Positions 6,095 through 53,943 of a stretch of 64,000 nt of DNA are shown here, one piece after another. Under the pieces are notes generated by a model. That model was given only the letters and a program-made list of their open reading frames with translations. It ran no database searches and was not told the origin of the DNA. The stretch spans positions 124,001-188,000 of the forward strand of contig JAUMYZ010000002.1 in the NCBI GenBank assembly GCA_030528385.1. The letters are read 5' to 3'. This DNA is from Moraxella sp. GTDB lineage: Bacteria > Pseudomonadota > Gammaproteobacteria > Pseudomonadales > Moraxellaceae. The translations under genes were made by a program, and so were the position numbers. The stretch's first letter is position 1; every line of letters starts with the position of its first letter.

Positions 6095-6775
6095 ATGATA
6101 AATTTACGCAGCACCGACACTGTTTTGACAAAGTTTTTAAGCAAAGTTCACCAACAGGTATTTTTTGGCACCCAAAAACACCCCATCAGCATCCATCAAA
6201 TGGGCAATTATCGCTGGTACCATGTCTTTGAACTTACGCCCGTCAGTGATGATTTGCTTGTCTTGTTGCACGCGCCCAGCATTGTTGTCTGCATAGGATT
6301 ATTGCTTGACCACGCTTTAAAAAACCCTTTACAAATCAGTTATTTTATCAAAAAAACGCCTTTAATTGATTTAACGATAAACAATGACAACTTCAAGCAA
6401 GACGATTTTTTGTGGCAAGAAAACTGCCTAGAATGTTTTGTAGAATACAACAGGGCAAATGACTATTTTGAAATCAATGTCGCTTTAGATGGTCGCCATA
6501 ACGTTTATCATTTTGACAATTATCGCACGCCAAACGTCATGCCACCCAGACAAGCCAAACTTGGTGATGTGTTGGTGGACAATCTTGCTCATGCTTCTGA
6601 TGTTGTGGACGGCTTTTATTCTCGCCACATCAATCTGCTGGGCAATAAAGCCGCTTTGCCCACCCGCCTAAATCCCACAGCGATTTTATATGTTGACGGA
6701 CAAGGTATTTTTTATGCCAACACCCACGCCAATCCGCCCGACTTTCATGACAAACGACACTGGGTGCTTTGTTAA
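6095..6775 (+). CDS. DOMON-like (CBM9-type) domain protein
   Basis: Protein of 226 residues with no signal peptide. The central stretch LWQENCLECFVEYNRAN, then FEINVALDG and YHFDNYRTP, and the C-terminal NPPDFHDKRHW resemble the bacterial DOMON-like / carbohydrate-binding-module-9 family of small cytoplasmic proteins with an immunoglobulin-like fold. The family has no firmly assigned function. It starts 24 nt after yhbY and could be cotranscribed. It is convergent with the next gene, with a gap of one base. Confidence 0.6.
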   Translation: MINLRSTDTVLTKFLSKVHQQVFFGTQKHPISIHQMGNYRWYHVFELTPVSDDLLVLLHAPSIVVCIGLLLDHALKNPLQISYFIKKTPLIDLTINNDNFKQDDFLWQENCLECFVEYNRANDYFEINVALDGRHNVYHFDNYRTPNVMPPRQAKLGDVLVDNLAHASDVVDGFYSRHINLLGNKAALPTRLNPTAILYVDGQGIFYANTHANPPDFHDKRHWVLC

Positions 6776-40849: not shown

Positions 40850-41482
40850 CTACAAAAACTGCCGAAATAATATCGGACTTTGTTTTAGTAAAGTTTGGGT
40901 TTGATGAATGGCAACAAAACTTTTATCACTAAGTTGTTTTTGGTGGTCTGTGGTAGGCAATATCAACAACACTTTGCCTGCGGTGTTTTTATCTGCCGTT
41001 AGCCAAAGTTTTTCAAATTGTTTGCGTGTCAAAGTACGATTGCCCCAACCAGAATCCGCCAAATAAATATTGTTGCCATCTATTGCTCGCACCACGCTAA
41101 AATGATCGCTGCGTTTGTGATTGACATAAACAATCACCGGAATTTTAATCTTGGCAAGCGTGTCATAATCCATCATCATGCCACGAGCGACAAAACCATA
41201 TTTTTGACTAACCATCGCCAAATCAGCAAATGATGCCATCACACCATCTAATGCCATGTCATCCAAAACTTGCTGTTCGGTTTTTGGTGTTTGATAAAAG
41301 TAAGTTAAAATGGTGGATAGTGATGATGCACCGCACGAATAATCCACATCTTGCTTGGTGATGTTGGCATCTCTGTTATCTTTCCAAGTGGTTTTGGTGC
41401 TAAGCGGTGTGTTTAGCAGATATTGCCAATCAGCGTAAGCGGTACCAACCAGAACGGTTAATAAAACAAGCACAAATTTCAT
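40850..41482 (-). CDS. secreted C39-family cysteine peptidase
   Basis: Protein of 210 residues with a Sec signal peptide (residues 1-17, ending TAYA before DWQ). The peptidase C39 residues are present: Gln44 and Cys50 in KQDVDYSCGASSL, His127 in RSDHFSVVRAI and Asp143 in IYLADSGWG. C39 enzymes normally form the N-terminal domain of ABC exporters and cut double-glycine leaders in the cytoplasm. Here the domain stands alone and is exported, so it should act in the periplasm. It starts one base after the beta-barrel gene stop (coupled translation). The nearby precursor has a matching Gly-Ala leader, making this the likely processing enzyme. Confidence 0.88.
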   Translation of the reverse strand: MKFVLVLLTVLVGTAYADWQYLLNTPLSTKTTWKDNRDANITKQDVDYSCGASSLSTILTYFYQTPKTEQQVLDDMALDGVMASFADLAMVSQKYGFVARGMMMDYDTLAKIKIPVIVYVNHKRSDHFSVVRAIDGNNIYLADSGWGNRTLTRKQFEKLWLTADKNTAGKVLLILPTTDHQKQLSDKSFVAIHQTQTLLKQSPILFRQFL

Positions 41483-41483
41483 A

Positions 41484-42428
41484 TCAAGGTGCGGCAGGCT
41501 CTGGCGTTTTGTTTTGGCGGTATTTTTGCGATAACGGTGGGGGCAACTCGCCCAGTTTGGTGGTCAAACCCACAGACAAGGTGCTGCCACCATCGCCTGA
41601 GATGGGCATACGAACATTGGTCGTTAGGTTGGTTCTGGCACTCATGGCGTAGGCAAATCCTAGATTAAGCGTGGTTTGAGTGTTGTTATTTTCTAGCTTG
41701 GTGCTACTTTTGTCCGCCCATTTGTGGCGTACGCCCACACCACCCGTTAGGGTAATATCAGGATTGACCGCAAAACCCACCGAACCATTTAACATGGCGG
41801 TATCGCCAATAGCCACTTGACCGCCGTTTTTTAAATCACGCTTGGCTTGGTATTGGTAACTGCCTGTCAAACTTAGTACAATGGGATCATTGACCACATA
41901 GACCGTGCCACCAATCACGGCAGACGCACCGCTTTTTGAACGCAGTCCTTGGGTGTTGTCATAAACTGATACTTCGCCAAATATGAGACTGTCTGGCAGG
42001 GATTGATGATTTTGGGTGGCTTGGTATTGGCTGGTGATACTGACATCTTGTAGATAGGTGTCGCTGGTATTGGTAAAATGATTGGCATTTTGATGACGAG
42101 CAGCGTTATATATACCACTGGTTTTAATACCCAGCTCAAATTTATCACTTACCCCATAACGCAAACCCAGCCCTGCGATGAGACTATCAGTATTGCTATG
42201 ACTATTACCCACCGATGGGATATAAATGATGCGTCCATTACCCACGTCTATGCTATCAAAGTCCTGTGCGGTGGCTGCTACCTTATGATGGTTATAATAG
42301 CTAAGATTGGTATCTAGCTTAAAGCGGTTTTTATCCGCTAATAAATCCTCTACCGTTAGGGGTAGGTCGGCGTGGGCTACTACCGAAAATGTAAAAATCA
42401 ACACAAGAGATGACTTTAAATATTCCAT
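41484..42428 (-). CDS. outer-membrane beta-barrel-like protein
   Basis: Protein of 314 residues with a Sec signal peptide (about residues 1-20, ending AHA before DLPLTVEDLL). The mature part is made of alternating amphipathic strands with Gly/aromatic turns (GLGLRYGVSDKFELGIKTSG, LNGSVGFAVNPDITLTGGVG, LNLGFAYAMSARTNL), typical of a 12-strand-like outer-membrane channel. A short proline-rich tail follows the last strand (ELPPPLSQ). It is cotranscribed with the C39 peptidase. Together with the upstream peptide genes it is a plausible exit channel for the processed peptide; this is inferred, not shown. Confidence 0.75.
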   Translation of the reverse strand: MEYLKSSLVLIFTFSVVAHADLPLTVEDLLADKNRFKLDTNLSYYNHHKVAATAQDFDSIDVGNGRIIYIPSVGNSHSNTDSLIAGLGLRYGVSDKFELGIKTSGIYNAARHQNANHFTNTSDTYLQDVSITSQYQATQNHQSLPDSLIFGEVSVYDNTQGLRSKSGASAVIGGTVYVVNDPIVLSLTGSYQYQAKRDLKNGGQVAIGDTAMLNGSVGFAVNPDITLTGGVGVRHKWADKSSTKLENNNTQTTLNLGFAYAMSARTNLTTNVRMPISGDGGSTLSVGLTTKLGELPPPLSQKYRQNKTPEPAAP

Positions 42429-42546
42429 AAATTATTTCTTAAAGGTGTTAGAGATTAAAAAACATATGAACAGAAATAATGAAGCTAACAGTGATAAAAA
42501 AATTGAAAAAAAATATCATACCATTATTAGATTTTACAAAAAATCT

Positions 42547-42672
42547 TTAACACATATCGCAATCAAAATAAAAACACCAAAAAATAACGAAAATAAAAAT
42601 TGTAATTTTTTGGATTTTTTTTTCTATATCATAGCCAACATATGATAAAATTCCAGATATGAAATCAAACAT
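42547..42672 (-). CDS. short membrane ORF (immunity-like, possibly frameshifted)
   Basis: A 41-residue frame starting ATG two bases after the stop of the core-D remnant. Its first half (MFDFISGILSYVGYDIEKK) is polar, then hydrophobic. A run of nine A (read on the minus strand) lies after residue 16. One A fewer would shift the frame into SKKLQFLFSLFFGVFILIAI, a cleaner membrane segment, giving about 45 residues. By position it matches the other small membrane proteins that follow each core piece. Very AT-rich. No family recognised. Confidence 0.4.
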   Translation of the reverse strand: MFDFISGILSYVGYDIEKKIQKITIFIFVIFWCFYFDCDMC

Positions 42673-42674
42673 AA

Positions 42675-42906
42675 TTAAAATCCAATAATTGCATTATAAA
42701 TATAAGTGATTTGTAATGCACATTACAAAAGATAAAATTCTTTACTATCTGCCTGCACAAAGCTTTATTAGTACCATAGTTTGCCGCTATACCATTTACT
42801 CGCCAAGCATTCGTACCTATATTTGTTAGACTTGGGGTAAACTTAGTCCCACCGCTTGCGATATAACCAGCACCCCCGTTAATATACCAATCACCGCACC
42901 ACTGTC
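42675..42906 (-). pseudogene. core-peptide remnant D
   Basis: No start codon or leader. The frame opens with DSGAVIGILTG and then, after adding one G to a run of five, continues as GAGYIASGGTKFTPSLTNIG and on to a stop at 42675. The opening resembles core B (NSGAVGVAITATP) and the GGAVAGAIGGP part of core A. This suggests a decayed or silent core peptide of the same family. The next small membrane ORF begins two bases after its stop. Confidence 0.5.
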
Positions 42907-43009
42907 AACATAACAAAAAATAGATCATAAAATTCTTTATCACCGTCAATCCTTATTTTGTTATAATAAAAACCAAAAATATTTTACCATAACAAAATAA
43001 TAAAACATA

Positions 43010-43561
43010 TCATGATATAATTTTTTTAACATCTATGCTAATATAGCAAGATAAAAAACCTTTTAATTTAACACTAATAAAAAATTTATTACCATTATCA
43101 TCTATCACTCTTTGTAAGAATATTGTACCAAAATTAAAAATAGGGGATATTTTAATACTATTAAATTTCTCATCATTTATCATTAAATAATTGCAACCAG
43201 ATTTTGCCGATAATACAAAAGTAAACTCATTATCTTTTACAATAATTTTATGAATACTTCCCATTATTTTATCATACGTAATGGGTATTTTTTTGCTAAA
43301 TGCGGACAAATTATTCTTTATAGGAATAAAACCAATATTATCTATTTTTTCTGTATTTAGGATAAAATGACAAATAGAATAACAAACAAATAACCCCATT
43401 ATAATAAATAACGAATAAGGCAAATAAATATTGTGATATAAAACAATACAAACAAAAAATAACATCACAATTACAGATATAGCTAAATAATTTTTTCTAA
43501 TTTTTAACTCTCTAAAAATAGAAAAAATCTCAGGTATAAGTTCGGTTATCAAGAGCCACAT
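43010..43561 (-). CDS. two-TM membrane protein (candidate immunity protein C)
   Basis: Protein of 183 residues, not recognised. Two membrane segments (about residues 26-45 and 49-67) are followed by a soluble domain rich in Ile, Asn and Lys with mixed strands. Codon use is extremely AT-rich compared with flanking core genes, a sign of recent transfer. It follows the headless core C by 78 bp and is the third membrane ORF in the cassette series, so protection against core C is a reasonable guess. Confidence 0.6.
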   Translation of the reverse strand: MWLLITELIPEIFSIFRELKIRKNYLAISVIVMLFFVCIVLYHNIYLPYSLFIIMGLFVCYSICHFILNTEKIDNIGFIPIKNNLSAFSKKIPITYDKIMGSIHKIIVKDNEFTFVLSAKSGCNYLMINDEKFNSIKISPIFNFGTIFLQRVIDDNGNKFFISVKLKGFLSCYISIDVKKIIS

Positions 43562-43587
43562 GAATAAATTCCATTTTAACCATACAA

Positions 43588-43624
43588 TTTATAAGACCAA
43601 GTTGGGTAAACTCAGTCTTATAAA
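43588..43624. repeat. inverted repeat between core C and its membrane ORF
   Basis: TTTATAAGAC (43588-43597) and GTCTTATAAA (43615-43624) are exact inverted repeats with a 17-nt loop. They may form an RNA stem that limits or stabilises the transcript between the two ORFs. Confidence 0.45.
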
Positions 43625-43639
43625 TACCATCAAAATCTG

Positions 43640-43804
43640 TTATCTTCTATTCATGTAACCACGAATACGATTATGGAGAAGTTGTGGTCCTGGTCCAGCT
43701 GCCCATCTTGCCCCCGCATACATTGCAGGAACACCATATACAACACCATAGTAAGCAAGTGGTGCCCAAGCCCCCTGTGTCTCTTCCATCTGCTTATCCG
43801 TCAT
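43640..43804 (-). CDS. core peptide C with double-glycine-type leader end, no signal peptide
   Basis: A 54-residue frame that begins with MTDKQMEETQGAWAP, i.e. the same leader end as the full precursor, followed by a different core rich in Ala, Gly, Tyr and Arg (YYGVVYGVPAMYAGARWA, ending NRIRGYMNRR). The first 40 bp are identical to the expressed gene at 45095-45134. There is an in-frame stop shortly upstream, no signal peptide and no ribosome-binding site, so it is probably silent by itself. It could replace the expressed core by recombination in the shared 40 bp. Confidence 0.6.
   Translation of the reverse strand: MTDKQMEETQGAWAPLAYYGVVYGVPAMYAGARWAAGPGPQLLHNRIRGYMNRR
43765..43804 (-). 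repeat. 40-bp leader repeat, copy 2
   Basis: Identical to copy 1 at 45095-45134. It encodes MTDKQMEETQGAWG/A up to and just past the predicted Gly-Ala cut site. Similarity starts exactly at the Met codon and stops one or two codons after the cut site. Confidence 0.9.
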
Positions 43805-43819
43805 CAAAGATGCAACAAC

Positions 43820-44089
43820 CTATCCATTTTTAATTTTAAAAAATATTGAACAAACTCCCATTAAAGGATAGCACATCATCATTAACAAATAGTATGGACT
43901 TTTCACATCAATACCCAAATTATTACAAGCCAAACAACCAATTAAAATCAAAAATATCAGTAAAAATAAAATATTAGGAAGTGTCAAATCTTCTTTTTTG
44001 ACAAAAGTATTCAAAAAAGGGATTATGGAACAAAATACAAATACAGGCAGAATATAAGCTGATGACATCATTTCATTAATAGCAATCAA
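43820..44089 (-). CDS. three-TM small membrane protein (candidate immunity protein B)
   Basis: Protein of up to 89 residues with three hydrophobic segments (AYILPVFVFCSIIPFLNTF, ILFLLIFLILIGCLACN, YYLLMMMCYPLMGVCSIFF). Start is TTG at 44089 or ATG at 44071. No family recognised, but size and topology resemble immunity proteins of membrane-acting bacteriocins. It follows core remnant B by about 70 bp. AT-rich. Confidence 0.5.
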   Translation of the reverse strand: MIAINEMMSSAYILPVFVFCSIIPFLNTFVKKEDLTLPNILFLLIFLILIGCLACNNLGIDVKSPYYLLMMMCYPLMGVCSIFFKIKNG

Positions 44090-44157
44090 TTAAAGACAAA
44101 GTGGTGATATTAAGCAAAAATACCTAACACCACCATGTATTGAATTATAATGATGAT

Positions 44158-44280
44158 TTATCTTCTAAATTTATTGGCATAATGACCACCGCCCAAGACA
44201 ACACCACCACCTATAACAGCCGACCTAATTGCACCAATTGGCGTAGCAGTAATAGCAACGCCTACTGCACCACTATTTTT
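44158..44280 (-). pseudogene. core-peptide remnant B
   Basis: A 40-codon open stretch, closed upstream by a stop, with no start codon. It reads KNSGAVGVAITATPIGAIRS followed by a Gly/Val-rich end and YANKFRR. It shares the GAV-x-AI-x-P-x-G-IR pattern with core A (GGAVAGAIGGPVGIRN), so it is the C-terminal part of a homologous peptide whose leader has been lost. Confidence 0.5.
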
Positions 44281-44600
44281 TTATTAATAAATAAAAAATA
44301 TGCTATTTAATAAAAATACAATCAAAGAAATAATTAGGTTAAATGATTTTGTTAAATATTATAACTCATGAATAAAAAACAAACCAACTACCACAATAAA
44401 AGTTAAAGCACCAACTCTAATTATATCAGAATAGTGATATTTTTATTCTCACAACAACAGAAAAAAACTTGTTGTTGCCAAAAAATACACCAAATCAATA
44501 TTGCTAGCATATTTAGTTTATTTATTTACTCTTGAAGTTAAAAATTCTGATATAAAAATACTACCATCAAAAAAATTAATAACATAAACGATAATAATAT
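44281..44600. other. decayed membrane-ORF sequence
   Basis: On the minus strand, hydrophobic coding-like pieces (ALTFIVVVGLFFIHEL and NLIISLIVFLLNSIFF) are interrupted by a stop and by a hairpin (ACAACAACAG / CTTGTTGTTG, about 44451-44477). This looks like a broken membrane or immunity gene. No intact gene is seen. Confidence 0.4.
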
Positions 44601-44610
44601 AAAAATTATG

Positions 44611-44868
44611 TTACGAATTTATTTTATTAATCATGTATTTACGATAAAAGAAAATACAAATAATTGGTGCCAGTAATAAAATCCAACCAAATATAAATTG
44701 AGCATTTAAATTGGATTCAATATTTTCCAAAACAAACTGTCTAGCCAGTGTCATTGATGTAGGTAAAATTAACAAAGTCAATGAACCCACCCAATTGGGT
44801 AACTTTGACTTATTTAGGTATATCAATCCAGAAGTCAAAGACCCAATGATAATTATCAACCAAAACAT
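44611..44868 (-). CDS. three-TM small membrane protein (candidate immunity protein A)
   Basis: Protein of 85 residues with three hydrophobic segments (FWLIIIIGSLTSGLIYL, WVGSLTLLILPTSMTLA, FIFGWILLLAPIICIFF) and a basic tail (YRKYMINKINS). It starts seven bases after the stop of the restored core-A frame, so it is almost certainly in the same transcript. Position, size and topology fit an immunity protein for core A. No sequence family is recognised. Confidence 0.6.
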   Translation of the reverse strand: MFWLIIIIGSLTSGLIYLNKSKLPNWVGSLTLLILPTSMTLARQFVLENIESNLNAQFIFGWILLLAPIICIFFYRKYMINKINS

Positions 44869-44875
44869 TGTTAAA

Positions 44876-45332
44876 TTACTTATTGACTACAGTGCCTATA
44901 AAGTTAGTTGCAGCACCTGTACGTGATAGATAATAGTAATTTCTAATTCCAACAGGTCCACCTATTGCTCCAGCAACAGCACCACCAGCAGTATAAACAC
45001 CTAAGCCTTTCCAAGTAAATTTATTGCCACCAGCAACACCCCCCCATATAACTCCAAGCCCCAATACCTGCACCAGCCCAAGCTCCTAGTGCACCCCAAG
45101 CCCCCTGTGTCTCTTCCATCTGCTTATCCGTCATGGCAACGGCTTGCAGGTTTTGCGTGTCATTAAAGGCAAAAGATAGGTCAGCTTGTGAGATGGTGTC
45201 TGGGGTGGATAGCACGGACAGCTCTGGTTGAACGGCTGGGGCTGCTTTGCTATAATAACTGGTCTCTGCAAAAGCAGGGGCAGACGCTACGGCAGCACTC
45301 ATGGTTAGTGCTAGGATTGAGAACTTTTTCAT
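44876..45332 (-). CDS. bacteriocin-like precursor A with Sec signal and Gly-Ala leader (frameshifted)
   Basis: Starts at ATG 45332 with AGGA 8 nt upstream. Residues 1-22 are a Sec signal peptide (MKKFSILALT to AFA before ETSYY). A 56-residue leader follows, ending MTDKQMEETQGA with Met at -12 and -7, Thr at -4 and Gly-Ala at -2/-1, the pattern of double-glycine leaders. The core begins WGALGAWAGAGIGAW. A run of seven G (45039-45045) throws the frame into a stop at 45021. With six G it would continue as GGVAGGNKFTWKGLG to the stop at 44876: 151 residues, core 73, Gly/Ala-rich like class II bacteriocins. As sequenced it is broken or phase-off. Confidence 0.7.
45095..45134 (-). repeat. 40-bp leader repeat, copy 1 (expressed gene)
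   Basis: Exact match to 43765-43804. It spans the end of the leader and the cut site of precursor A. Confidence 0.9.
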
Positions 45333-45446
45333 AAATTTTCCTGTTTTTAGTTTATGGAAAGCCATCAGCCCAAAGACCGATAGCAATAACCACCGCTAGG
45401 GCATTCGTAGGTGAGATGATGATTGCCTTACTGGTGGTTGTCTGTG

Positions 45447-45475
45447 ATTATAGTCAAAACAGTTGTACCCGTCAA
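45447..45475 (-). promoter_or_regulatory. sigma-70 promoter of the peptide cassette operon
   Basis: On the minus strand TTGACG (45475-45470) and a perfect TATAAT (45452-45447) are separated by exactly 17 nt. The start of transcription would be near 45440, giving a leader of about 108 nt before the precursor ATG. Confidence 0.75.
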
Positions 45476-51956: not shown

Positions 51957-51987
51957 TTGACAAAAACTAAGGGGGGGGGGGTAAGAT
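51957..51987 (+). promoter_or_regulatory. promoter with an 11-G run in its spacer (probable phase-variable promoter)
   Basis: A perfect TTGACA (51957-51962) and TAAGAT (51982-51987) are 19 nt apart. The last 11 bases of the spacer (51971-51981) are all G. Loss of one or two G would give 18 or the optimal 17 nt. The gene starts 57 nt downstream. Runs of G between -35 and -10 boxes are a known phase-variation device in Neisseria and Moraxella relatives. Confidence 0.7.
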
Positions 51988-52044: not shown

Positions 52045-53943
52045 ATGACACTCACTCACCAACCAAATTTTTTAAAAAAATTTTGGTACTTTTTAACCTT
52101 TAAAACTCACCACAACAATTTACTAACCACAGGTGGTGCAAGTTATTTGACCGTCATTTCTGTGATTGTGTCTTTGGCGGCGTTTTCTGAAGCCTTTGCA
52201 TGGGGTCATTTTAGCAGTACTTTTACCCCAGAAACTCCATTATTGGGTGGTATTGGTTTGGGTGTTTTTATTTTTTTATTGTTTTGGTTTTTTGACAGAA
52301 CAATGGCAACACAAGATATGCTCTCCAATGAACACGCCTACACCTTAGAAGGCGAAGAAAAACCCAAAAATATTTGGTTTAAATTTAAAATTGGCACATG
52401 GATTATCTTTGTTGCAAGACTTTGCATTGTAATAGGTTCTTTATATATTACCGCACCTTTTTTAACACAATTAGTTTTTAGTAGTGATATTAAAAAAGAA
52501 ATGGAACAGCAATACAAAAACAATATTGAAATCGCCAAAGAAAATACCATTGGCGTGCTTGATAACAAAATTAACGAACAGCAGAACCACATCAAAAATC
52601 TACACGATAAACTACAACAAGAAATCGGCGGTAAACGTGGCACAGGTTATGGCAAAGGCGAAGTTGCCAAGAGCATAGAAGCAGAAATTGCGTCTATTGA
52701 CCAAGAATTATCTTCTTTAAAATCACAACGCCAAAATACAGAAATAACCATCAATCAAGCCATCATTGATAACGACTTTCAAACTCTAAAATCATTTGGC
52801 ATATTTGTTGTGCAAGACAGCCCAATATTTAGAGAGCAAGCGGTTGAAAAACTCAAATCCCAACCTGCTTTTATTAGCACCAAACAAGCCGTAGAAGGAT
52901 TTTTAATCATTGTGGGTTTGATTTTAATTTTGGCAAAACTGTTACAACCAAAATCTTTGCAAATGTATTATTCATCACGTCTTCAAGAAGCATGGATAAA
53001 CTATCAAAAAGGCAACTATGATGACTATTTACCCAATAGCGAAAAAAGCATCAATATGCCAGACAATCCAATGCCACAAACTTTTGAGAAAATTGCCATT
53101 CGTTATGCCAAAACCAAAGACGAACGGGAAAAAGACGCATTAAAAGAAAAAGAAAGGGCAAAATCTTTAAAACAACGACAAGAAGAAAGACGCTTACAAT
53201 TAGAGCAAGAGCAAGAAGAAAAACGCATCAGACTAGAAAACAGTCGCCAAGAATATGCCGAACACCATGCCAGAGAATTGCAAAGTTTAAGTTATGAAGA
53301 CAAAACAACCAATTATCACAAACGCCAAATCAAAGAAGCAAAACAGGCAATTGTCCAGCAAATGACATTATTTAGACAAGAAAATGAAACCAGAAAAAAC
53401 GAATTGTTTGCCAAAAGACAAGCCATATTAGAAGAAATCGCCGAAGCCACTCGCATTTATCAAAGAAAACAAGAAGATGCCAAAGCTCGCCAAGAAAGAC
53501 TGACCAATGCCAAGCATAAACTTGAAGAATTAAACACAATCGCCCAAGTATTGGAAAGCAAGGGCAGAGACAGCCTAGAAAATGTCAAAAGCTATGCTTA
53601 TACCCAAGACAGCATAGACCATCAAAAACAACATATTAAAAATTTGCAGGACAATTATTTAACCTTTGAAAGAGACATCAATTTTTATGAGCAAAAATTA
53701 CAAAATTTATATGAACAAAAAACCGATATTGATAAAGAACTTTTGTTTTTAAAACAAAAATGGGACGCACTCAAACAAGCCCACCACAACCAAGAATTAA
53801 AAGAAATTGAATTGCTTGGTAAAACTGATTTTAATACGCCCTATATTCACGGCACAGAAGAAGAAATTCCCCATATGGCAGAAAAGGTAAAAAATGAAGA
53901 ACCGCACTATTATTACTACACAGACAATAAAAACGTGGCTTGA
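52045..53943 (+). CDS. DUF4407 membrane protein with long coiled coils
   Basis: Protein of 632 residues. Three membrane segments lie near 35-52, 66-84 and 115-140, with the DUF4407 motif WFFDRTMA after the second. A helical region (about 150-245) comes next, then a fourth membrane segment (VEGFLIIVGLILILAKLL, about 288-305), then a very long charged coiled coil (about 350-615, KERAKSLKQRQEERRLQLEQ-like). Function of the family is unknown. It is more AT-rich than smc. Its promoter has a G run, so the protein may be surface- or phage-related and switched on and off. Confidence 0.75.
   Translation: MTLTHQPNFLKKFWYFLTFKTHHNNLLTTGGASYLTVISVIVSLAAFSEAFAWGHFSSTFTPETPLLGGIGLGVFIFLLFWFFDRTMATQDMLSNEHAYTLEGEEKPKNIWFKFKIGTWIIFVARLCIVIGSLYITAPFLTQLVFSSDIKKEMEQQYKNNIEIAKENTIGVLDNKINEQQNHIKNLHDKLQQEIGGKRGTGYGKGEVAKSIEAEIASIDQELSSLKSQRQNTEITINQAIIDNDFQTLKSFGIFVVQDSPIFREQAVEKLKSQPAFISTKQAVEGFLIIVGLILILAKLLQPKSLQMYYSSRLQEAWINYQKGNYDDYLPNSEKSINMPDNPMPQTFEKIAIRYAKTKDEREKDALKEKERAKSLKQRQEERRLQLEQEQEEKRIRLENSRQEYAEHHARELQSLSYEDKTTNYHKRQIKEAKQAIVQQMTLFRQENETRKNELFAKRQAILEEIAEATRIYQRKQEDAKARQERLTNAKHKLEELNTIAQVLESKGRDSLENVKSYAYTQDSIDHQKQHIKNLQDNYLTFERDINFYEQKLQNLYEQKTDIDKELLFLKQKWDALKQAHHNQELKEIELLGKTDFNTPYIHGTEEEIPHMAEKVKNEEPHYYYYTDNKNVA

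What the first reader, a model, noticed from the sequence alone, without database searches (positions are those of the whole stretch)
40850..45475. A Sec-exported, C39-processed peptide system without an ABC transporter
Seen: a peptide precursor with a Sec signal peptide (residues 1-22) and, 56 residues later, a double-glycine-type leader end (MTDKQMEETQGA; Met-12, Met-7, Thr-4, Gly-2, Ala-1). On the same strand there is a beta-barrel-like protein with a signal peptide, then, one base later, a C39 peptidase with a signal peptide and Gln44/Cys50/His127/Asp143. Known: class II microcins and other double-glycine peptides are cut in the cytoplasm by a C39 domain fused to an ABC exporter. None is seen here. 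Inferred: two-step maturation, with Sec transport first, periplasmic cutting after Gly-Ala second, and outer-membrane exit through the barrel. This would be a different export logic for bacteriocin-like peptides. The small membrane ORFs nearby could give immunity.
Basis: partly seen in the sequence, partly recalled or inferred. Interest (0 to 1): 0.92.

Follow-up and report, generated by a model that had tools for sequence, protein, structure and literature searches.

The report
Moraxella two-step peptide-effector export locus
A Moraxella genome carries a locus that appears to send bacteriocin-like peptides through the general Sec route, trim them in the periplasm with a stand-alone C39 protease and release them through an outer-membrane barrel; relatives turn it into swappable arrays of effectors with paired immunity-like genes, and the same basic machinery is already known from the Pseudomonas amyloid (Fap) and gonococcal autolysis (Nap) systems.

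Summary
On the minus strand lie a precursor with a Sec signal peptide and a GA-type leader end, a beta-barrel gene and, one base later, a secreted C39 peptidase with an intact catalytic set. The trio is real: 9 of 22 genomes of the genus have the C39; 8 of those 9 also have the leader family (0 of 13 without the C39), and 8 of 9 have the barrel. This genome has no other C39 domain, so no ABC-fused C39 exporter. The barrel is FapF-like and the peptidase FapD/NapP-like. The closest published system is the gonococcal nap island (PMC11798529, 2025), whose model is also periplasmic cutting by NapP and exit through NapF; that text never mentions a signal peptide. So the export logic is not unprecedented. 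New here: an explicit Sec signal, arrays of up to seven precursors with a near-constant leader and variable cores, paired small ORFs that travel with particular cores (immunity candidates), orphan cassettes and orphan immunity genes, and complete sets on small Acinetobacter, E. coli and Campylobacter plasmids. In this strain the only full-length precursor is frame-broken at a G7 tract and two other cassettes are leaderless or degenerate. Effector function is inferred; the tested Naps did not kill competitors.

The parts
45447..45475 (-). promoter-like site TTGACG-17-TATAAT (11/12) upstream of the precursor
   Evidence: consensus scan; not evidence of function
45021..45332 (-). effector precursor as assembled (103 aa; frame ends early inside the core)
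   Evidence: leader HMM E 4e-28
45267..45332 (-). Sec signal peptide of the precursor (residues 1-22, AFA/E)
   Evidence: sequence and conservation across 18 precursors; no SignalP available
45099..45134 (-). GA-type leader end MTDKQMEETQGA
45039..45045 (-). G7 tract (coding strand) at which the core frame is broken
44876..45038 (-). rest of the glycine-rich core in another frame
   Evidence: similar to cores in L061, L041 and L032
44611..44868 (-). candidate immunity gene 1 (85 aa, membrane protein-like)
   Evidence: position only; no homologue found in the loci compared
44161..44274 (-). degenerate core of cassette 2, no leader
   Evidence: 63-66% identical to the core C termini of L031/L034, E 2e-13
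43820..44071 (-). candidate immunity gene 2 (83 aa membrane protein)
   Evidence: 44-49% identical to the ORF after the matching core in L031/L034, E 8e-21
43640..43807 (-). cassette 3: leader end without signal peptide plus core
   Evidence: 47-nt repeat with 45088-45134; core 53% identical to L032 core, E 6e-10
43010..43561 (-). candidate immunity gene 3 (183 aa membrane protein)
   Evidence: 32% identical over full length to the ORF after the matching core in L032, E 2e-31
41484..42428 (-). FapF/NapF-like outer-membrane barrel (314 aa)
40850..41482 (-). secreted C39 peptidase, FapD/NapP-like (210 aa)

Best explanation
The locus is a Moraxella member of the Fap/Nap type of export (Sec, then periplasmic C39, then FapF-like barrel), used for interchangeable bacteriocin-like effectors. 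Proposed steps: (1) the precursor crosses the inner membrane by Sec and loses its signal peptide (inferred from sequence); (2) the linker and leader end ADLSFAF..MTDKEMxETEGA is recognised in the periplasm by the stand-alone C39, which cuts after GA (inferred; catalytic residues and leader invariant); (3) the freed core leaves through the FapF-like barrel (inferred by homology to FapF); (4) the core acts on competing relatives or, as in gonococcus, on the producer's own population; the small ORF after each core gives immunity (inferred from core-ORF co-inheritance and from orphan retention). Core-plus-immunity cassettes are gained and swapped by recombination, probably at the conserved leader, leaving silent cassettes. 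In this strain export and processing genes are intact but the single full-length precursor is frame-broken, so output is probably reduced or switched off.
For: Trio conserved with synteny in other Moraxella, Psychrobacter phenylpyruvicus, Shewanella; leaders in 8 of 9 C39-positive and 0 of 13 C39-negative genomes of the genus, Fisher 2.8e-5 without correction for relatedness. Leader near-constant, cores variable. Sole C39 domain in the genome. Barrel profile hits only FapF in the PDB, E 2.6e-6; Foldseek top hit FapF, E 6e-12. C39 model matches leader-cutting C39 domains PCAT1/ComA. Core and downstream ORF similarity correlate, Mantel r 0.65, p 2e-4, and both remnant pairs in the window match intact pairs elsewhere. 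A decayed copy at the same xerC site in G025 keeps an intact 88-aa ORF of the immunity-candidate type while barrel, C39 and precursor are lost or broken. M. cuniculi keeps barrel, C39 and such ORFs without precursors. Small plasmids carry complete sets: Acinetobacter, E. coli pSCU-111-4, Campylobacter concisus. For FapD, the active-site Cys and periplasmic location are needed for secretion (PMC5557850).
Against: No experiment on any Moraxella component. Signal peptides judged by eye and conservation only. Barrel model has low confidence (mean pLDDT 56). G094 has C39 and precursors but no intact barrel; M. cuniculi and G056 have barrel and C39 but no precursor was recognised. Synthetic mature Naps did not inhibit competitors (PMC11798529). 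No core matched a known toxin family. The Mantel test includes closely related loci (L035, L036, L041), and many similar cores have dissimilar downstream ORFs.
Confidence: 0.74

Rival explanations
1. Nap-like autolysis system: the peptides act on the producer population in stationary phase, and the small membrane ORFs are holin-like or regulatory rather than immunity genes.
For: Closest published relative is the nap island (PMC11798529); two small membrane proteins of the nap locus belong to families found in Moraxella cassettes; synthetic Naps not antibacterial.
Against: Moraxella cores are highly diverse, paired with particular ORFs, and some arrays hold up to seven different precursors; orphan ORFs persist without precursors. 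That looks like competition, not one self-lysis programme.
Confidence: 0.2
2. Fap-like functional amyloid or surface-fibre system: glycine-rich cores are exported to build surface aggregates, C39 and barrel acting as FapD and FapF.
For: FapD is the best NCBIfam match of the C39; the barrel is FapF-like.
Against: No FapB, FapC or FapE match among the window's proteins scanned nor among the 18 precursors; cores are short, variable, without N/Q-rich repeats, and paired with small membrane proteins; the barrel (314 aa) lacks the long N-terminal extension of the FapF-like proteins of 430-452 aa in L078/L079.
Confidence: 0.08
3. Unlinked parts: a periplasmic C39 and a porin-like barrel that do not process or export the peptide, which leaves by another route or is cell-bound.
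For: No biochemical link shown; G094 lacks an intact barrel.
Against: Persistent synteny across families and phyla, and leader presence tracking C39 presence.
Confidence: 0.05
4. The window copy is only a decaying relic with no present function.
For: Precursor frame broken at a G7 tract, two other cassettes leaderless or degenerate; a further decayed copy exists in G025.
Against: Barrel and C39 frames and catalytic residues intact; two immunity candidates open and conserved in sequence; homopolymer tracts can phase-vary, as reported for napR and napC.
Confidence: 0.3

Closest known systems
Neisseria nap island (NapP, NapF, NapABC; PMC11798529)
   Same: C39 peptidase 42% identical, NapF-type barrel, bacteriocin-like GG/GA precursors, related small membrane proteins, AT-rich middle with higher-GC C39 and barrel genes, frame-breaking homopolymers.
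   Different: The paper describes no signal peptide (0 hits) and suggests holin-like NapH for the inner-membrane step; Moraxella precursors carry explicit Sec signals, larger polymorphic cores, multi-cassette arrays and core-specific paired ORFs; reported Nap role is autolysis.
Pseudomonas Fap amyloid system (FapA-F; PMC5557850, PMC6173800)
   Same: Sec export of substrates, periplasmic C39 (FapD), FapF outer-membrane channel.
   Different: Fap substrates are N/Q-rich amyloid subunits; FapD substrate undetermined in the papers read; FapF is trimeric with a periplasmic coiled coil; Moraxella barrel is shorter and substrates are small polymorphic peptides with a clear leader end.
Class II microcins and double-glycine bacteriocins with peptidase-containing ABC exporters
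   Same: Leader ending in Gly-Ala/Gly-Gly cut by a C39 peptidase, small glycine-rich peptides, paired immunity genes.
   Different: No ABC-fused C39 in the genome; peptidase is Sec-secreted; precursor has a Sec signal in front of the leader; leader position -4 is Thr.
Polymorphic toxin systems (CDI, MafB; PMC3482391, PMC4287609)
   Same: Constant N terminus, variable C terminus, paired downstream ORF, orphan cassettes.
   Different: Delivery by C39 and FapF-like barrel; effectors mostly small; toxicity untested.
Acinetobacter Fil pilus C39 FilB (NF050078)
   Same: Periplasmic-type C39, E 3e-14.
   Different: Far below the curated cut-off (53 against 475 bits); no Fil pilus genes seen in the window's locus.

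Membership tests
Nap system | NapP-like secreted C39 | tested here: met
   42% identity over 77% of the query, E 9e-40, in the gonococcal locus beside histidyl-tRNA synthetase
Nap system | NapF/FapF-like channel in the same locus | tested here: met
   30% identity, E 6e-27; HMM 1e-26 and 2.5e-53
Nap system | bacteriocin-like precursors with a GG/GA site | tested here: met
Nap system | peptides promote autolysis | not testable with these tools
   needs experiments
Fap system | FapD equivalog | tested here: not met
   66 bits against a cut-off of 330; homologous but not the equivalog
Fap system | FapF-like OM channel | tested here: met
   low-confidence model
Fap system | amyloid subunits FapB/FapC/FapE | tested here: not met
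   no match among the six window proteins scanned or the 18 precursors of A3
Class II microcin with T1SS | C39 fused to an ABC exporter | tested here: not met
   only one PF03412 domain in the 2.05-Mb genome
Class II microcin with T1SS | double-glycine type leader | tested here: met
   GA end with M-12, M-7; -4 is Thr; only subthreshold match to a bacteriocin leader model
Polymorphic effector/immunity system | constant N terminus, variable C terminus | tested here: met
Polymorphic effector/immunity system | variable part co-inherited with a specific downstream ORF | tested here: met
   Mantel r 0.65, p 2e-4; window pairs match L032 and L031/L034; not corrected for relatedness
Polymorphic effector/immunity system | toxicity and neutralisation | not testable with these tools
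   needs experiments

The most novel reading that the evidence does not exclude
Fap, Nap and this locus are branches of one broad secretion pathway (Sec, periplasmic C39, FapF-family barrel) defined by a common substrate leader end (roughly LSxxEMxxxxG-A/G) that serves amyloid subunits, autolysis peptides and polymorphic antibacterial effectors, occurs on mobile plasmids across phyla, and whose Fap branch processes FapE at the equivalent site.
Probability: 0.5. Interest if true: 0.82.

Novelty: new variant of a known kind. Interest (0 to 1): 0.64.

Why it matters
It turns two isolated cases (Fap amyloid, gonococcal Nap) into one testable export pathway, supplies the inner-membrane step that the Nap model lacked (Sec signals), gives periplasmic C39 peptidases an obvious substrate motif (the FapD substrate was reported as undetermined), and points to a delivery route for diverse effector/immunity pairs in Moraxella, Acinetobacter and small E. 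coli and Campylobacter plasmids. A 5.9-kb E. coli plasmid with barrel, precursor, paired ORF and C39 makes it tractable in laboratory strains.

Tried and rejected
Phage origin: leader and C39 searches in viral contigs found no relative. ABC-C39 partner elsewhere in the genome: none. Toxin identity of the cores: no significant match in Pfam, NCBIfam or (one core) PDB. Defence-system reading: PADLOC gave nothing convincing. Conserved phase-variation tract: no comparable tract in the relatives' loci, so a switch role for the G7 tract is not supported by conservation; decay or assembly error remain possible. NCBIfam JUQZ/BLB8 and cerein leader hits were below cut-off; the literature on JUQZ concerns a Brevibacillus bacteriocin. 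The naive search for leaders by one fixed pattern failed at first and was replaced by an HMM.
Full report
What is there. On the minus strand of the window, in order of transcription: a promoter-like site (45475-45447), a precursor whose ATG is at 45332, small ORFs and cassette remnants, a barrel gene (42428-41484) and, one base on, a C39 peptidase (41482-40850). The precursor has a Sec-type signal peptide (residues 1-22) and a GA leader end MTDKQMEETQGA (67-78). The C39 domain is PF03412 (E 8e-22) with Q44, C50, H127 and D143 invariant in 12 homologues. Downstream of the leader the frame stops early at a G7 tract (45039-45045), the rest of the glycine-rich core lying in another frame.

Is it a system? 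The C39 is found in 9 of 22 genomes of the genus, the leader HMM in 8 of these 9 and in none of the 13 others except a signal-peptide fragment in G025 (one-sided Fisher 2.8e-5, not corrected for phylogeny), and the barrel in 8 of the 9 (two pieces in M. bovoculi; missing in G094) plus a fragment in G025. Named relatives are M. caprae, M. oculi, M. bovoculi, M. cuniculi, several Moraxella MAGs, Psychrobacter phenylpyruvicus and Shewanella electrodiphila. Barrel and C39 are adjacent or close in nearly all. Only one C39 domain exists in the whole genome of the window, so the refuting case of an ABC-fused C39 partner is excluded as far as the assembly goes.

What the parts are. The barrel profile finds only FapF among all PDB sequences (E 2.6e-6), and its low-confidence model (mean pLDDT 56) has FapF as best structural match, followed by the COG4313 channel. 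The C39 is closest to FapD and FilB in NCBIfam but far below their cut-offs; its model matches the leader-cutting domains of PCAT1 and ComA.

A polymorphic array. Other Moraxella loci hold one to seven precursors with a near-constant N-terminal part (MKKLSILALTATVAIAPAFAETT ... ADLSFAFDDVENLQAVAMTDKEMAETEGA) and variable cores, each usually followed by a small ORF. Similarity of cores and of their downstream ORFs is correlated over 26 cassettes (Mantel r 0.65, permutation p 2e-4; 7 pairs alike in both, 22 in core only, 0 in downstream ORF only; for this comparison only, the two frame pieces of the window core were placed side by side). Two remnant cassettes in the window match intact pairs elsewhere: core 44274-44161 and ORF 43820-44071 match L031 and L034; core 43750-43643 and ORF 43010-43561 match L032. 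The 47-nt leader-end repeat lacks a signal peptide in front of it, so these are silent cassettes. In G025, at the same site beside xerC, precursor and barrel are fragments and the C39 is gone, yet an 88-aa ORF resembling (by eye) the one paired with a core in L041 is intact. M. cuniculi has barrel, C39 and paired-ORF homologues but no recognised precursor. This pattern fits immunity genes. The cassette DNA is AT-rich (GC 21-34%) against 38-49% for leader, barrel and C39.

Wider spread. Complete sets occur on small plasmids: Acinetobacter sp. TR11 (6.3 kb), Acinetobacter sp. SAAs474, E. coli SCU-111 (5.9 kb; barrel, SP-LSETELDETTGK precursor, 118-aa ORF, C39; one of 5,426 E. coli genomes) and Campylobacter concisus pCCON16 with several Sec-plus-GG precursors. 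Tistrella has barrel, precursor and C39 in a row. Further gammaproteobacteria at class level do too.

Prior art. Fap shows Sec-exported substrates, a periplasmic C39 whose Cys is needed for secretion, and FapF (PMC5557850). The nap island of Neisseria (PMC11798529) has NapP (C39), NapF (FapF-like), bacteriocin-like GG peptides and a model of periplasmic cutting and exit by NapF. The gonococcal locus L059 is that island, recognised by its C39 beside histidyl-tRNA synthetase and a pseudouridine synthase; two of its small membrane ORFs belong to families present in Moraxella cassettes. The paper never mentions a signal peptide and suggests a holin for the inner-membrane step. So the export logic is known; the Sec signals, the array structure, core-ORF pairing and wide spread are what this locus adds. 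No report of it in Moraxella was found in the held library, which is not all literature.

Function. Shown: the genes, their conservation and pairing. Inferred: Sec transport, cutting after GA, exit by the barrel, effector action, immunity. Cores match no known toxin family. Since synthetic Naps did not inhibit competitors, a self-directed role remains a serious rival.

Side lead. FapE homologues in L079 and L081 (NCBIfam E 1e-22 and 1e-27) and the equivalently placed proteins in L075, L077 and L078 carry a Sec-type N terminus (in L078 not checked in detail) followed by LSDEELGGLRGR, LSDDEMGDMRGR or L(D/S)DDTLDTLRGG-like ends. This suggests FapE as FapD substrate at a site comparable with the Moraxella leader; it is a lead, not a test.

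Noticed in passing
L079:6105-6968, L081:7480-8313, L075:5863-6336, L077:5672-6139, L078:6760-7446: FapE homologues and equivalently placed proteins have a Sec-type N terminus and a leader-like end (LSDEELGGLRGR, LDDDTLDTLRGG), suggesting the undetermined FapD substrate and site.
   Followed up: partly
L062:7986-11346: Second gonococcal locus (NGO_0166-like) with a barrel, a Sec-plus-TEGA precursor of 179 aa with a His-rich C terminus, and several small ORFs; no C39 nearby.
   Followed up: partly
L059:5827-6117 and 6359-6613: Small membrane proteins of the nap island belong to families of Moraxella cassette ORFs; one may be the protein called holin-like in the paper, so an immunity role should be considered.
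   Followed up: partly
L106 (E. coli pSCU-111-4): A 5.9-kb mobilizable plasmid carries barrel, precursor, small membrane ORF and secreted C39, a compact model system.
   Followed up: yes
L107 (Campylobacter concisus pCCON16): At least three Sec-plus-GG precursors with larger cores, with barrel and C39 side by side.
   Followed up: partly
L072, L073 (genome G193): Seven C39 copies in one genome, with long (315-353 aa) Sec-plus-leader substrates.
   Followed up: partly
L038:2589-3068, L039:5206-5694: A 159-162-aa secreted-looking protein (DUF2059-like by eye, not tested) sits beside the C39; possible accessory or chaperone.
   Followed up: no
window 51971-51981: G11 tract in the intergenic region upstream of a 632-aa membrane protein ORF (52045-53943); possible promoter phase variation.
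   Followed up: no
L036:7018-7963: The M. bovoculi 237 barrel gene is split into two frames.
   Followed up: no
G078:C16:52249-52452: A lone leader match (72-aa frame) away from the C39 locus in M. caprae.
   Followed up: no
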